A stretch of DNA of 33,349 nt, taken from contig JAUNGI010000031.1 of the NCBI GenBank assembly GCA_030524525.1, forward strand, positions 1 through 33,349, in the 5' to 3' direction. Shown one piece after another: positions 687 through 9,201 of this stretch (the first letter of the stretch is position 1; each line of letters starts with the position of its first letter). The notes under the pieces are model-generated. The model had not been told where the DNA came from. It ran no database searches and saw nothing but the letters and a program-made list of their open reading frames with translations. This DNA comes from Lachnospiraceae bacterium (GTDB lineage Bacteria; Bacillota; Clostridia; Lachnospirales; Lachnospiraceae). A program made the translations under genes and the position numbers.

Positions 687-715
687 CGCATGGATCGACG
701 ACAGAAGAAAGGAGC

Positions 716-834
716 GGTTAGATTGAAAAATCACACTGATGTGCTGATTTTTCAATCGGCTATTTGTTTCTGAACGAAAGCAAATAGCTCTGATTGTACA
801 TCTTCGCGACAAGGTCACTCAGAAAGGGGTTCGT
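716..834 (+). promoter_or_regulatory. Structured leader of relA/spoT, copy 1 of a duplicated element
   Basis: Bases 716-767 are identical to 7294-7345. Hairpin 1 pairs 721-736 with 741-757 (loop TGAT, one bulged C at 744). Hairpin 2 pairs GCTATTTG (759-766) with CAAATAGC (781-788). A weaker hairpin 3 (TGA-TTGT 791-797 with ACAA-TCA 809-817) carries CTTCGCGA (802-809), also found in hairpin 3 of copy 2. TTTCTGA at 767-773, in the hairpin 2 loop, is perfectly complementary to TCAGAAA at 819-825, which overlaps the start of the relA Shine-Dalgarno (AAAGGGG, 823-829). No T-run follows any hairpin, so this is not a simple terminator. A translation-level switch is the best guess. Confidence 0.55.
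723..773 (+). CDS. Possible 16-aa leader peptide in front of relA/spoT
   Basis: A TTG codon at 723 follows GGAG (711-714) at 8 nt and opens a 16-codon frame whose first 15 residues (MKNHTDVLIFQSAIC) equal those of the ORF at 7301. It ends at TGA 771-773, inside the loop of leader hairpin 2. With only two identical copies it cannot be decided whether the peptide or the RNA fold is what is conserved. Confidence 0.25.
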   Translation: MKNHTDVLIFQSAICF

Positions 835-3123
835 ATGGAAGAAAAAGATAACCTGCGCACGGAGGCGGATGCGCCGCAGAGGGCGCAGATCGGGCTGACG
901 CCCGAATTTGCCGATCCGGACGAGCTGTATCGGAAGCTGGAAGACAGCATCCGCAAGTATCGGCCGAATACGGATCTCTCCAATGTAAGAAAGGCGTACG
1001 AGCTGGCAAAGCAGGCGCACGGGGAACAGAAGCGCAAGAGCGGCGAGCCGTATATCAACCATCCGCTTTCGGTGGCGATCATCCTTGCGGAGCTGGAAAT
1101 GGACAAGGAAACCATCATCGCCGGACTGCTGCACGACGTGGTGGAGGACACGCCGATCACCGAGGAGGAGCTGACCGAGATGTTCGGCAGCGAGGTGACG
1201 CTGCTGGTGGACGGGGTAACCAAGCTGACCAAGCTGAATTATTCGCAGGACAAGGTGGAGATTCAGGCGGAGAATCTGCGGAAAATGTTCCTCGCAATGG
1301 CGAAGGATATCCGCGTCGTGGTCATCAAGCTGGCGGACCGCCTGCACAACATGCGCACGATGCAGTATCAGACGCCCAACAAGCAGCTGGAAAAGTCGCG
1401 GGAAACGCTGGATATTTATTCGCCCCTCGCCCAGCGTCTCGGTATCAGCAAGATCAAGACCGAGCTGGACGATCTGGCGCTCAAGTTTTTGGAACCGGAG
1501 GTCTATCGAAAGCTCTCCGAGGAGATCAAGGCGACGCGTTACGAACGCGAGGCGTTTATCCGCCGGATCATCGCCGAGGTGGAGGTGCAGCTCAAGGAAG
1601 CGGGCATCGAGGCGAAGCTCGACGGCCGCGCAAAGCACTTTTTCAGCATTTATCGGAAGATGGTCAATCAGAACAAGACGCTCGATCAGATCTACGATTT
1701 GTTTGCCGTGCGGATCATCGTCGCGTCGGTAAAGGACTGCTACGCGGCGCTGGGCGTCATCCACGAAATGTATAAGCCCATTCCGGGGCGTTTTAAGGAC
1801 TATATCGCGATGCCGAAGCCCAATATGTATCAGTCGCTGCATACGACGCTGATCGGGCCGGAGGGAACGCCGTTTGAGATCCAGATCCGAACCGAGGAAA
1901 TGCACCGCACCGCCGAATACGGTATCGCGGCGCACTGGAAGTACAAGGAGGCGCAGAACGGCATCCACACGTCCGCAAACGAGGAGCAGAAGCTGGCATG
2001 GCTGCGGGAGATCCTCGACTGGCAGCGGGAGATGTCGGACAACAAGGAGTTTCTGAACTCCTTAAAGAACGATCTCGACCTGTTCAACGACAGCGTTTAC
2101 TGCTTTACGCCCACGGGCGACGTGAAGACGCTTCCGGTCGGCTCCAATCCGGTGGACTTTGCCTACAGCATCCACAGCGCCGTCGGCAACAAGATGATCG
2201 GCGCGCGGGTCAACGGAAAGCTGGTCACGATCGACTACGAGATCCAGAACGGCGACCAGATCGAGATCATCACGTCCGCGAACTCCAAGGGTCCGAGCCG
2301 CGATTGGCTGAAGATCGTCAAATCGACGCAGGCAAAGTCGAAGATCTCCCAGTGGTTCAAGGCGGAGCTGAAGGAAGACAATATCCTGCGCGGGAAAAAC
2401 CTGCTGAACGCCTACGCGAAGGCAAAGGGCGTGAATATCAGCGATCTGCTGAAGCCCGAATATCAGGAAGTCTGTATGCGCAAATACGGCTTCCGGGACT
2501 GGGATTCCCTGCTTGCCGCCGTGGGACACGGCAGCCTCAAGGAGGGGCAGGTCATCAACCGCCTGAACGAGGAGTGGAGCAAGGCGCAGAAGCGGAACAT
2601 GACGGCGGAGAAGGCGATCGAGGAGGTGCTTTCCTCCTCCAAGGCGGCGTCCACCAAGCCGAAGGGCGGTATTTTGGTCAAGGGCGTGGACGATCTCGCG
2701 GTTCACTTCTCGCGCTGCTGCGCGCCGGTGCCGGGGGACGAGATCGTGGGCTTTGTGACCCGCGGCCGCGGGATCTCCATTCACCGGACCGACTGCGTCA
2801 ACATCCTGCATCTGCCGCGCGCCGACCAGCAGCGGCTGATCGAGGCGGAGTGGAGCATGGACGAGGAGGAAAAGACCGATCGTCTGTATAACGCGGAGAT
2901 CAAGATCTTTGCGCGGAACAATCCGGGCGTGCTGCTGGAGGTGACCCGGGTGCTGAGCGAGGATAAGGTGAACATCAGCTCGATCATTGCAAGACCGGGC
3001 AAAAACGATATCAGCACGATCGTCGTTGCGTTTGAGATCCGGGGAACCGGGCAGCTGAATTCCATTATCAATCGGCTGCGCCAGATCGACCAAGTGCTTG
3101 ACATTGAAAGAACCACGGGCTGA
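835..3123 (+). CDS. relA: Bifunctional (p)ppGpp synthetase/hydrolase (Rel/SpoT)
   Basis: Makes and degrades the stringent-response alarmone (p)ppGpp. The 762-aa length fits the long ribosome-associated RSH family. Domains in order: HD hydrolase (about 40-200) with an intact LLHDVVEDT near 97-105; synthetase (about 245-390) with RFKDYIAMPKPN and YQSLH near 318-335; TGS (about 415-480); a conserved-cysteine region with CCAPVPGD near 627; a C-terminal ACT domain from about 690. Both catalytic halves look complete, so it should be bifunctional. The ATG at 835 has the Shine-Dalgarno AAAGGGG at 5-nt spacing. The 148-nt leader holds a structured repeat whose loop can pair with bases at this Shine-Dalgarno. 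An MBL hydrolase starts 14 nt after the stop, so the two are probably co-transcribed. Confidence 0.97.
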   Translation: MEEKDNLRTEADAPQRAQIGLTPEFADPDELYRKLEDSIRKYRPNTDLSNVRKAYELAKQAHGEQKRKSGEPYINHPLSVAIILAELEMDKETIIAGLLHDVVEDTPITEEELTEMFGSEVTLLVDGVTKLTKLNYSQDKVEIQAENLRKMFLAMAKDIRVVVIKLADRLHNMRTMQYQTPNKQLEKSRETLDIYSPLAQRLGISKIKTELDDLALKFLEPEVYRKLSEEIKATRYEREAFIRRIIAEVEVQLKEAGIEAKLDGRAKHFFSIYRKMVNQNKTLDQIYDLFAVRIIVASVKDCYAALGVIHEMYKPIPGRFKDYIAMPKPNMYQSLHTTLIGPEGTPFEIQIRTEEMHRTAEYGIAAHWKYKEAQNGIHTSANEEQKLAWLREILDWQREMSDNKEFLNSLKNDLDLFNDSVYCFTPTGDVKTLPVGSNPVDFAYSIHSAVGNKMIGARVNGKLVTIDYEIQNGDQIEIITSANSKGPSRDWLKIVKSTQAKSKISQWFKAELKEDNILRGKNLLNAYAKAKGVNISDLLKPEYQEVCMRKYGFRDWDSLLAAVGHGSLKEGQVINRLNEEWSKAQKRNMTAEKAIEEVLSSSKAASTKPKGGILVKGVDDLAVHFSRCCAPVPGDEIVGFVTRGRGISIHRTDCVNILHLPRADQQRLIEAEWSMDEEEKTDRLYNAEIKIFARNNPGVLLEVTRVLSEDKVNISSIIARPGKNDISTIVVAFEIRGTGQLNSIINRLRQIDQVLDIERTTG

Positions 3124-7293: not shown

Positions 7294-7440
7294 GGTTAGA
7301 TTGAAAAATCACACTGATGTGCTGATTTTTCAATCGGCTATTTGTGCCGGAGCATCACAAATAGCTTTGATGGCAGAAGAGAAATCGCCTTCGCGAATTT
7401 CTCTTCGCCCCGTCGCAAATGCTCCGGAATGGAGATTATT
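7294..7440 (+). promoter_or_regulatory. Structured leader of aspS, copy 2 of a duplicated element
   Basis: Shares a perfect 52-nt block (7294-7345) with 716-767. Hairpin 1 spans 7299-7335. Hairpin 2 has a 10-bp stem, GCTATTTGTG (7337-7346) with CACAAATAGC (7356-7365). Hairpin 3 pairs 7376-7388 with 7393-7406 (13 bp, one bulged A, loop CTTC). The hairpin 2 loop CCGGAGCAT (7347-7355) is perfectly complementary to ATGCTCCGG at 7419-7427, ending 3 nt before the aspS Shine-Dalgarno (GGAG 7431-7434). This would form a pseudoknot next to the ribosome site. No T-box hallmark and no T-run were found. It replaces the expected T-box position. Confidence 0.6.
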
Positions 7441-7444
7441 ATGA
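7301..7444 (+). CDS. Possible 47-aa leader peptide translationally coupled to aspS
   Basis: TTG 7301 lies 5 nt after a strong GGAGG (7291-7295) and opens a frame of 47 codons. It begins MKNHTDVLIFQSAIC and runs through all three leader hairpins to a TGA at 7442-7444 that overlaps the aspS start as ATGA. Good ribosome site and stop-start overlap support translation. The TTG start, the lack of any known domain and the fact that hairpins in the DNA could by chance leave a frame open argue for caution. It shares its first 15 codons with the short ORF in front of relA/spoT. Confidence 0.4.
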   Translation: MKNHTDVLIFQSAICAGASQIALMAEEKSPSRISLRPVANAPEWRLL

Positions 7445-9201
7445 CACAATCAAGAACACATACCTGCAACGAGCTTCGGCTTGCCAACGTGGGCGAGACC
7501 GTGACCTTGGCGGGCTGGTATGACAACATGCGCAAGGTAAGCCGCAATCTGGGCTTCCTGATCCTTCGCGACTTCTACGGGACGACGCAGTGCGTGGTGG
7601 AGACCGAAGAAATGATGGAGGCGCTGAACGGCGTGAACAACGAATCCACCCTTTCGGTTACCGGCGTGGTAAGAGAGCGCTCCAACAAAAACCCGCAGCT
7701 TGCCACCGGGGATATCGAGGTGGTTCCCACGGAGATCCGGGTATTGGGAAAGTGCATCCACAATGAGCTTCCCTTTGAGATCGCCCGTTCCAAGGAGGCG
7801 GACGAGGCGGTCCGGCTGAAATACCGTTATCTGGATCTGCGAAATCCCGCGGTAAAGGACAAGATCATCCTGCGCAGCAAGATCGTAGCGGAGCTTCGTC
7901 AAAGCATGATCGCCCACGATTTTATGGAGATCACCACGCCGATCCTGACCTGCTCCTCTCCCGAAGGGGCAAGAGACTATCTCGTGCCGGCAAGAAATCA
8001 TCCGGGCAGGTTTTACGCGCTTCCGCAGGCGCCCCAGCAGTTTAAGCAGATCCTGATGACCGCCGGCTTTGACCGCTATTTCCAGATCGCGCCCTGCTTC
8101 CGCGACGAGGACGCGCGTGCCGATCGTTCTCCCGGCGAGTTTTATCAGCTGGATATGGAGATGGCGTTCGCCTCGCAGGAGGACGTCTTTGCGGTCATTG
8201 AGGACGTGATCCCTCCGGTCTTTGCAAAATACGGTATTTACAAGAAAGCGTCCGCCGCGCCCTTCCGCCGCATCTCCTATCAGGACGCGCTTGCAGCCTA
8301 CGGCTCCGACAAGCCGGATCTGCGGATCGACCTGACCCTGACCGACGCTACGGATGCGCTTTCCGACTGCGGCTTCGCGCCGTTTGCGGGCAATTCCGTT
8401 CAGGCGATCGTTGTGGACGGCTTTACCGCAACGAGAAAGGTCATCGACAAGATCATGGCGGACTGCGAAATGATCTCCGGTCAGAAGGGCTACTGGTTCA
8501 AGCTGGATGAAAACGGCGAATTGGTGGGCGGCATTGCAAAATTCCTGCAGGAAAGCAAAGCGGAGGTCGTGGAAAAGCTTGGGCTCAAGCCCGGCGACTT
8601 CGTGGGCCTGACCGCAGGAAAGCGGCTGACCGCGCTGAAATCCGCCGGCGTTCTTCGGAAGCTGCTCGGAGAAAACTGCGAAAAGCATAAGAAGAACGAC
8701 TGCTATGAATTCTGCTGGATCGTGGATTTCCCGATGTACGAGATCGGCGAGGAATCCGGCGAGCTGGAGTTCTGCCACAATCCGTTCTCCATGCCGCAGG
8801 GCGGTATGGACGCTCTGAACAACCAGGACCCGCTTGAGATCAAGGCATACCAGTACGATCTGGTCTGCAACGGCGTGGAGCTTTCCTCCGGAGCCGTCCG
8901 TAACCACGATCCGGAGATCATGGTGCGCGCCTTTGACATCGTGGGTCTGAAGGAAGAGGACGTGAAGGCAAAATTCCCGGCAATGTACAACGCGTTCTGC
9001 TACGGCGCTCCGCCCCACGCGGGCATTGCGCCCGGCGTTGACCGCATGGTCATGCTGATCGCCGGCGAGGAAAGCATCCGCGAGATCATTCCGTTCCCGA
9101 TGAACAAGAACGCGCAGGACGTTATGATGGGAGCGCCGTCTCCGGTCAGCGCCAAGCAGCTTGCGGACGTGCATATTGCGATCGTTGAGGATGCGGAGTA
9201 A
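7441..9201 (+). CDS. aspS: Aspartyl-tRNA synthetase
   Basis: Class IIb synthetase of the bacterial type, 586 aa from ATG 7441. An N-terminal OB-fold anticodon domain (GETVTLAGWYDNMR) is followed by the catalytic core with motif 2 (CFRDEDARADRS, near 219), a GAD-type insertion (about 285-410) and motif 3 (GIAPGVDRMVML, near 527). The motif 2 region reads RADRSPGEFYQLD rather than the RADRQPEFTQID of the classic enzyme, a variant I believe is common in Clostridia. Whether it also charges tRNA-Asn cannot be read from the sequence. A longer in-frame start at 7342 adds leader-encoded residues and was rejected. Expression is probably set by the structured leader and the coupled leader ORF. Confidence 0.97.
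   Translation: MTQSRTHTCNELRLANVGETVTLAGWYDNMRKVSRNLGFLILRDFYGTTQCVVETEEMMEALNGVNNESTLSVTGVVRERSNKNPQLATGDIEVVPTEIRVLGKCIHNELPFEIARSKEADEAVRLKYRYLDLRNPAVKDKIILRSKIVAELRQSMIAHDFMEITTPILTCSSPEGARDYLVPARNHPGRFYALPQAPQQFKQILMTAGFDRYFQIAPCFRDEDARADRSPGEFYQLDMEMAFASQEDVFAVIEDVIPPVFAKYGIYKKASAAPFRRISYQDALAAYGSDKPDLRIDLTLTDATDALSDCGFAPFAGNSVQAIVVDGFTATRKVIDKIMADCEMISGQKGYWFKLDENGELVGGIAKFLQESKAEVVEKLGLKPGDFVGLTAGKRLTALKSAGVLRKLLGENCEKHKKNDCYEFCWIVDFPMYEIGEESGELEFCHNPFSMPQGGMDALNNQDPLEIKAYQYDLVCNGVELSSGAVRNHDPEIMVRAFDIVGLKEEDVKAKFPAMYNAFCYGAPPHAGIAPGVDRMVMLIAGEESIREIIPFPMNKNAQDVMMGAPSPVSAKQLADVHIAIVEDAE

What the first reader, a model, noticed from the sequence alone, without database searches (positions are those of the whole stretch)
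716..834. Leader element before relA/spoT with a loop complementary to the ribosome-site region
Bases 716-767 are identical to 7294-7345, far from it and in front of another translation-related gene. The fold is hairpin 1, hairpin 2 and a weaker hairpin 3. TTTCTGA (767-773), in the hairpin 2 loop, pairs perfectly with TCAGAAA (819-825), overlapping the relA Shine-Dalgarno. In copy 2 both loop and target have different sequences but are again perfectly complementary. Shared AAATAGCT-TGAT, CTTCGCGA and GTC-C motifs occur in the same order. Two compensatory pairs on a fixed scaffold is the mark of a real tertiary RNA interaction. I know no described RNA family with this outline; a hidden known family or mobile repeat cannot be excluded.
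Basis: partly seen in the sequence, partly recalled or inferred. Interest (0 to 1): 0.88.

Follow-up and report, generated by a model that had tools for sequence, protein, structure and literature searches.

The report
Mobile repeat targeting ribosome-binding sites
The folded stretch in front of relA is one of dozens of copies of a small, apparently mobile DNA repeat of gut bacteria that settles between a gene's ribosome-binding site and its start codon and leaves the gene with an intact-looking start signal.

Summary
It is not a relA leader but one copy of a small dispersed repeat: 67 places here; 69 matches at E<=1e-3 here, one each in two sister species, none in 19. Twelve of 150 family genomes, own included, have 5 or more matches (Lachnospiraceae judging by titles); two genomes of another family carry it. 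A start codon lies exactly 9 nt after the 3' motif in 115 of 182 distinct copies, against 49 of 3640 random positions. Left flanks resemble their own right ends beyond permutation, and sister relA sites are empty. Loop and 3' end covary: 345 of 378 cells paired, at most 323 in 1000 permutations. No Rfam match. Reverse transcriptase, Y1 transposase and IS110 are each missing from several copy-rich genomes; the mover is unknown. Best reading: a ribosome-site-targeting miniature mobile element, folded so that the invaded gene stays translatable.

The parts
710..720 (+). left target flank of copy 1: the stranded original Shine-Dalgarno (AGGAGCGGTTA)
   Evidence: Sister species without the element read AAAGGAGAGGTTCGTT-ATG (G155) and AAAGGAGCGATTCGAG-ATG (G165) here
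721..757 (+). hairpin 1 of copy 1, long near-perfect palindrome at the 5' end of the element
   Evidence: fold; identical or covarying in other copies
759..788 (+). hairpin 2 of copy 1 (GCTATTTG/CAAATAGC stem)
   Evidence: stem variants keep pairing in relatives
767..773 (+). variable loop of hairpin 2 (type a), complementary to 819-825
   Evidence: covariation
819..825 (+). 3'-end segment (anti-loop) of copy 1, overlapping the SD stretch
   Evidence: 7 Watson-Crick pairs
823..834 (+). right-hand SD and spacer (AAAGGGGTTCGT) before the relA start at 835; TTCG is shared with the empty sites
835..3120 (+). downstream gene: RelA/SpoT family protein
   Evidence: NCBIfam TIGR00691, 808.9 bits
7290..7298 (+). 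left target flank of copy 2 with the stranded SD (TGGAGGTTA)
   Evidence: sister G165 reads TTTGGAGGTAACCACAATG at this place
7299..7335 (+). hairpin 1 of copy 2, identical to copy 1
7337..7365 (+). hairpin 2 of copy 2 with type b loop; CCGGAGCAT at 7347-7355
7376..7406 (+). optional hairpin 3 (GAAGAGA..TCTCTTC), absent in copy 1
7419..7427 (+). 3'-end segment (anti-loop) of copy 2, ATGCTCCGG, complementary to 7347-7355
7430..7434 (+). SD at the element's right end (TGGAG), 6 nt before the aspS start at 7441
   Evidence: fixed distance of start codon from the 3' motif over copies
7441..9198 (+). downstream gene: aspartate--tRNA ligase
   Evidence: NCBIfam NF001750, 706.1 bits

Best explanation
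A non-autonomous miniature mobile element (about 110-150 bp, too short to encode a transposase) that inserts between a Shine-Dalgarno sequence and its start codon, pointing towards the gene. Shown: dispersed copies, abundance in one species of the genus, fixed place before start codons, empty sites in sisters, left flank resembling the copy's own right end, covarying pairing between the hairpin-2 loop and the element's 3' end. Inferred: (1) the target is recognised through the SD-like motif (GGAGG..TTA), which also forms the element's right border, so an insertion leaves an SD at the native distance from the start codon; (2) the transcribed insert folds into hairpins plus a loop/3'-end pseudoknot, packing away a stretch (CUCC or CUCA) that could otherwise pair with the SD, so the invaded gene stays translatable; (3) movement depends on a factor supplied in trans that I could not identify.
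For: 67 places in the 2.65-Mb genome; 52 of 67 followed by an SD and the start of an ORF in a permissive scan, against 209 of 1340 (15.6%) random windows by the same scan. Start codon exactly 9 nt after the 3' motif in 115 of 182 distinct copies and 6-14 nt after in 144; random positions 49 and 462 of 3640. Genus: 69 matches here, 1 each in two sisters, none in 19. Empty relA sites in G155 and G165. Left flank shares 9 nt or more with its own right end in 28 of 156 non-tandem copies against 12.4 expected (maximum 22 in 5000 permutations); with same-genome controls only, 19 of 103 against 10.1 (maximum 18 of 500). Pairing covariation. Ten of 12 copies without an intact hairpin 1, picked by eye, keep loop/3'-end pairing at a level reached by under 5% of shuffles. 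Near-identical copies before different genes in a genome of another family. Tandem copies, the second set into the first one's right end.
Against: No mover found: RVT_1, Y1_Tnp and IS110 are each absent from several copy-rich genomes. No terminal inverted repeats seen. Many right ends keep the family sequence rather than the target's, so simple target-site duplication does not explain all copies. Predicted SD openness rises only from 0.27 to 0.37 when loop and 3' end are masked as paired, and in only 37 of 67 copies: weak support for step 2. Three own copies with an a/b mismatch of loop and 3' end (L021, L341, L035) still precede reading frames. Stem mismatches show no G-U excess (HP1 5 GT to 9 AC, HP2 45 to 42; pairing 30 to 21).
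Confidence: 0.6

Rival explanations
1. The same mobile element, but the loop/3'-end pairing acts on single-stranded DNA (or on a guide RNA) during excision or insertion, marking the element's 3' terminus, and has no role in translation.
For: No G-U over A-C excess in stems, only 30 to 21 in the pairing; matched loop/3'-end types a, b, c are each multi-copy, while the mismatched chimeras L021, L341, L035 were seen once each; the 3' segment ends at the insertion border; weak predicted effect on the SD.
Against: Pairing is kept in 10 of 12 by-eye-picked copies without an intact hairpin 1; no Y1 or IS110 enzyme in many copy-rich genomes.
Confidence: 0.35
2. A cis-regulatory leader RNA (riboswitch-like switch) that controls relA and other genes, spread by duplication because it is useful.
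For: Position before start codons; covarying pairing next to the SD; in the fold of copy 2 the 3' segment pairs with the SD, so it could alternate between loop and SD.
Against: The ten downstream genes checked share no pathway; not upstream of relA in G155 and G165; no match in 19 of 21 sister species; no Rfam match; tandem and 5'-truncated copies.
Confidence: 0.12
3. Insertion is random, and selection leaves mostly copies that kept a ribosome site at the start codon.
For: The 5'-truncated copies read keep the 3' end with its SD (L036 is a partial exception); insertions that break genes would be lost.
Against: Only a few of the 67 own places (for example L020, L033, L345) show no following gene in the stretch read, although neutral places should be common; the start codon is exactly 9 nt from the 3' motif in 115 of 182 copies, which selection alone need not fix.
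Confidence: 0.1
4. A chance or assembly artefact.
For: Contigs C20 and C23 share two copies with identical flanks; some contigs end in the element.
Against: Copies with different flanks in one genome, in 12 of 150 family genomes with 5 or more, and in 80 loci of named records.
Confidence: 0.01

Closest known systems
YPAL / RU-2 of Yersinia (passages of review PMC2229807 seen)
   Same: Small (168 bp) dispersed repeat, inverted repeats internal, target duplications of variable size (3-26 bp), recent mobility judged from empty and filled sites.
   Different: By those passages YPAL targets sit at or beside dyad symmetry and it holds a contiguous reading frame; ours targets the Shine-Dalgarno before a start codon and has a covarying loop/3'-end pairing. 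Sequence similarity not tested.
BOX and RUP of Streptococcus pneumoniae (passages of PMC3049150 seen; RUP)
   Same: Folded repeats with many copies per genome; BOX is modular and its boxA and boxC can stimulate the next gene.
   Different: By the passages they have terminal inverted repeats like those of an IS; nothing in the passages ties them to the SD-start interval. Sequence similarity not tested.
Rickettsia palindromic elements (recalled; papers only listed)
   Same: Small palindromic repeats that enter genes without destroying them (recalled).
   Different: They lie inside reading frames (recalled); ours lies in the ribosome-binding site.
REP/RAYT and IS200/IS605 end hairpins (recalled)
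   Same: Hairpin at the 5' border beside a short target motif; pairing of an internal segment with an end recalls their guide/cleavage-site pairing.
   Different: Y1 transposase (PF01797) not found in 8 of 12 copy-rich genomes of the family.
Pseudoknot translational switches such as SAM-II and preQ1-II (recalled)
   Same: Loop pairing to the stretch around the SD.
   Different: No Rfam match; no fixed gene class.

Membership tests
MITE (miniature inverted-repeat transposable element) | Under about 200 bp, many copies, encodes no transposase | tested here: met
   110-150 bp, too short for a transposase; 67 places in one genome
MITE (miniature inverted-repeat transposable element) | Terminal inverted repeats | tested here: not met
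   By eye: start TAGATTG/TAGTGTG and end GCTCCGGAATGGAG are not inverted copies; inverted repeats are internal hairpins
MITE (miniature inverted-repeat transposable element) | Target-site duplication | tested here: inconclusive
   Own-flank resemblance beyond permutation and the relA site support it; many copies keep the family right end instead
MITE (miniature inverted-repeat transposable element) | Parent transposon with matching ends | tested here: inconclusive
   No copy with an internal gene among the partial and contig-end copies read; not searched exhaustively
IS200/IS605 or REP/RAYT element | Y1 (HUH) transposase in the genome | tested here: not met
   PF01797 not found in G000, G006, G042, G060, G094, G098, G125, G130 = 8 of 12 copy-rich family genomes; present in G012 (weak), G014, G024, G061, G177, G223
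Group II intron or other RT-moved element | Reverse transcriptase in the genome; intron family match | tested here: not met
   PF00078 not found in G006, G014, G042, G060, G094 and G177, but found in G000 and G223; no Rfam intron family at gathering, one plastid intron at 10.7 bits against 55.2 on the other strand
IS110 with bridge RNA | DEDD recombinase in the genome | tested here: not met
   No match over cut-off in G042, G061, G094, G098, G125, G223; present in G000, G012, G014, G024, G060, G177
Known Rfam RNA family | Match at gathering score | tested here: not met
   0 in the window; best sub-threshold match in 650-900 is 14.7 bits against 44
Riboswitch / leader RNA | Recurs before one class of genes, conserved at orthologous genes | tested here: not met
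Riboswitch / leader RNA | Ligand- or condition-dependent switching | not testable with these tools
   needs experiment
Phage- or plasmid-borne element | Found in phage or plasmid records | tested here: not met
   0 in viral contigs by exact hairpin-1 pattern; no blastn match of the relA copy in phages or plasmids

The most novel reading that the evidence does not exclude
A new class of bacterial mobile element, moved by an unidentified mechanism, whose target is the ribosome-binding site itself: it reads the Shine-Dalgarno, inserts at a fixed distance before the start codon, rebuilds the SD, and recognises its own 3' end by pairing with an internal loop, so that new loop/end pairs arise as matched subfamilies. 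Dozens of genes in one gut bacterium, housekeeping genes among them, are thereby translated from element-supplied start regions.
Probability: 0.4. Interest if true: 0.9.

Novelty: new variant of a known kind. Interest (0 to 1): 0.77.

Why it matters
This repeat goes to one of the most sensitive spots of a bacterial gene, the gap between Shine-Dalgarno and start codon, including that of enolase, GMP synthase, aspartyl-tRNA synthetase and RelA, and those reading frames look intact. If true it shows how a selfish element can target translation signals safely, gives a natural set of swapped 5' leaders for studying translation initiation in these gut bacteria, and points to an unknown mobilising mechanism that has crossed family borders.

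Tried and rejected
Rfam at gathering (window) and at E<=10 (650-900): nothing relevant. Reverse transcriptase, Y1 transposase and IS110 as movers: none was found in every copy-rich genome searched; other transposase families were not searched. Autonomous copies: the CM-partial and contig-end copies read were truncated, divergent or contig-broken copies. Strand test by G-U against A-C mismatches: no clear bias, so it does not decide between RNA and DNA. SD release by the pairing: only a small predicted effect. The first parse of loop/3'-end pairs used a motif that matched too early in many copies; redone. The first attempt to read the aspS empty sites failed by script and was redone. Phages, plasmids, viral contigs: no match. 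Literature: seven searches listed no paper on a repeat that inserts at Shine-Dalgarno sites; two papers were seen by passages only. A local hairpin whose 3' arm overlaps the anti-loop (GCGTAAACGC, GCGACAAGGTCGC and the like) was seen by eye as a possible competitor of the loop pairing, not tested.

Rows dropped or doubled: one search took 67 of the 78 matches (11 overlapping, opposite-strand, partial or weak ones left out); contigs C20 and C23 probably double two of them. One search parsed 103 of 106 rows. One search took 80 of the 85 matches (three cut at contig ends, one hairpin-1-only, one overlapping opposite-strand match left out); its permissive scan found a start in 71 of 80. One search used the 69 of 103 copies that fit the core pattern, 42 distinct. 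Searches counted four copies twice, because family genomes and named records overlap; redone without them (182 of 186 rows, of which 31 are own copies), whose numbers I give. In some searches all named records form one permutation group across genomes, which can inflate the flank test; one search is the same-genome version. The 12 copies were picked by eye; the degraded L035 and L036 were not included and would not pair.

Full report
Observation. Both fold far better than shuffles. No Rfam family reaches its gathering score in the window, and nothing relevant appears around copy 1 with relaxed limits. ARAGORN finds no tRNA.

It is a dispersed repeat. blastn with the relA copy finds 44 places in the same genome. 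A covariance model built from 14 copies finds 78 matches at E<=0.01; leaving out 11 overlapping, opposite-strand, partial or weak ones I worked with 67 places, two of which are probably doubled by contigs C20 and C23. The copies are modular: at least three loop/3'-end types (a: TTTCTGAGCGA with TCGCTCAGAAA; b: CCGGAGC(A/G)T with A(T/C)GCTCCGG; c: GCGGAGC with GCTCCGC, by eye), several hairpin-1 and hairpin-2 stems, and an optional hairpin 3.

It lies at ribosome-binding sites. In most copies an SD-like GGAGG stands just to the left, the element follows in the direction of the gene, and its right end carries an SD and then the start codon. Of 67 places in this genome, 52 have an SD and the start of a reading frame after the element in a permissive scan; random windows in the same loci give 209 of 1340 (15.6%). 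Of the 15 without, six stand before another copy or remnant, one is cut by a contig end, and by eye several others have a later or shorter frame. Over 182 distinct copies from this genome (31 of them), the family and named records, the start codon is exactly 9 nt after the 3' motif in 115 and 6-14 nt after it in 144; 14 lack a recognisable 3' motif and 14 have it but no qualifying frame nearby. Random positions in the same sequences give 49 and 462 of 3640. Ten downstream proteins checked are RelA, AspS, an XTP diphosphatase (RdgB/HAM1 family), LeuA, pyruvate kinase, KDPG aldolase, ProA, GMP synthase, enolase and RimM (pyruvate kinase and ProA only as fragments, below the curated cut-offs): no common pathway.

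It is mobile and recent here. Among 22 genomes of the genus only this one has the element in numbers (69 matches at E<=1e-3; one match in each of two others, of which L201 looks like a real copy before a resolvase-like gene and L202 does not, by eye; none in 19). In sister species G155 and G165 the relA site is empty and reads AAAGGAGAGGTTCGTT-ATG or AAAGGAGCGATTCGAG-ATG; here it reads AAAGGAGCGGTTA, element, CACTCAGAAAGGGGTTCGT-ATG, so an SD stands on both sides. The aspS site in G165 and G155 is empty too. In the family, 26 of 150 genomes match, own included, and 12 have five or more matches. In the order, 3 of 116 genomes match at E<=1e-5: this one and two genomes of one genus of another family, one of them with near-identical copies before many different genes.

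Borders. The left flank resembles the copy's own right end more than that of other copies of its group: 28 of 156 non-tandem copies share 9 nt or more, against 12.4 expected and a maximum of 22 in 5000 permutations. Named records form one group across genomes there; with same-genome controls only, 19 of 103 against 10.1, maximum 18 of 500, so the effect is smaller but stays. Private variants are shared, for instance AACGGAGGTTA in L104 and AACGGAGAATA in L097. But many copies keep a family-specific right end (GGAATGGAGATTA), and in the second family right ends are nearly constant up to GGAATGGAGGAT. I read this as insertion at a motif shared by element end and target, with the right border partly taken from the target; whether this is a true staggered-cut duplication is open.

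The pairing. Over 103 parsed copies, loops pair with their own 3' end far better than with others' or when shuffled. In a fixed register, five of nine positions show two or more Watson-Crick pair types, and observed pairing (345 of 378) and covariation (3.13) exceed all 1000 permutations (maximum 323 and 2.20); permuting within genomes never reaches the pairing count either. Other types pair as well (CCGCAGGCAC/GTGCCTGCGG in L106, CGAGAACGC/GCGTTCTCG in L148, GTCGGAGC/GCTCCGAC in L146). Against: some copies pair poorly (for example L051, L055, L073, L112, L147), and three own copies are a/b chimeras (L021, the same place as L051; L341; L035). Ten of twelve own copies without an intact hairpin 1, picked by eye, keep the pairing at a level reached by under 5% of shuffles; L341 and L039 do not, and the more degraded L035 and L036 were not included.

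What the pairing does. Two readings stand. In place: the 3' segment (CTCC or CTCA) can pair with the SD (GGAG or TGAG) next to it, as the fold of copy 2 shows, so loop pairing could free the SD; masking loop and 3' end raises predicted SD openness only from 0.27 to 0.37, and in only 37 of 67 copies. During movement: stems show no excess of G-U over A-C mismatches and the pairing only 30 to 21, whereas RNA-only selection should favour G-U, and matched types are the ones that multiplied. I give the in-place reading a small lead because the pairing outlives hairpin 1, and mark it as inferred.

The mover. Reverse transcriptases (PF00078), Y1 transposases (PF01797) and IS110 recombinases (PF01548) are each missing from several copy-rich genomes; this genome itself has one RVT_1 match, one IS110 match over cut-off and no Y1 match. 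Other transposase families were not searched. The element is absent from viral contigs by exact pattern and from phage and plasmid records by blastn. No copy with an internal gene was found among those read. The mover is unknown.

Known relatives. By passages seen, the Yersinia YPAL repeats (PMC2229807) are the nearest kind: small, internal palindromes, variable target duplications, empty and filled sites. BOX and RUP (PMC3049150) share copy number, and BOX modularity. None of the seven literature searches listed a repeat that targets Shine-Dalgarno sites; the library lacks most subscription papers, so this is no proof of novelty.

Verdict. It is a ribosome-site-targeting miniature mobile element with a covarying internal loop/3'-end pairing, a new variant of the small bacterial repeat elements, and possibly a new class if the mover proves new.

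Noticed in passing
L010 (G000:C44:32058-32181) and L201 (G155:C7:78916-79016): The only convincing copy in a sister species stands before the same gene as a copy here: a protein starting MERYGYIRVSAKDQ that looks like a serine recombinase (recalled motif, not scanned). It may mark the vehicle by which the element or its mover arrived.
   Followed up: no
G000 contigs C20 and C23 (L007/L008, L017/L018): Two copies with identical flanks occur on both contigs, which suggests assembly redundancy or strain mixture; counts of places in this genome may be slightly too high.
   Followed up: no
element 3' regions, e.g. GCGTAAACGC in G012 copies, GGCACTAAAGTGCC in L106, GCGACAAGGTCGC in type a: A small local hairpin whose 3' arm is the first half of the anti-loop, so it would compete with the loop pairing; a possible two-state switch.
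   Followed up: no
L040, L339, L346, L349 and the more divergent L340: A third subfamily (type c) in this genome, partly in arrays, with its own hairpin 3 (GCCGAAAATTTGAGATTTTCGGC) and, by eye, a matched loop/3' end.
   Followed up: partly
L033 (G000:C7:29869-29972): A copy whose hairpin-2 loop is inverted (TGATGCTCTGGCA), so it cannot pair with its 3' end; looks like an inversion of the hairpin.
   Followed up: no
L013 (G000:C56, after 3160): The reading frame after this copy runs into a stretch of N in the held genome.
   Followed up: no
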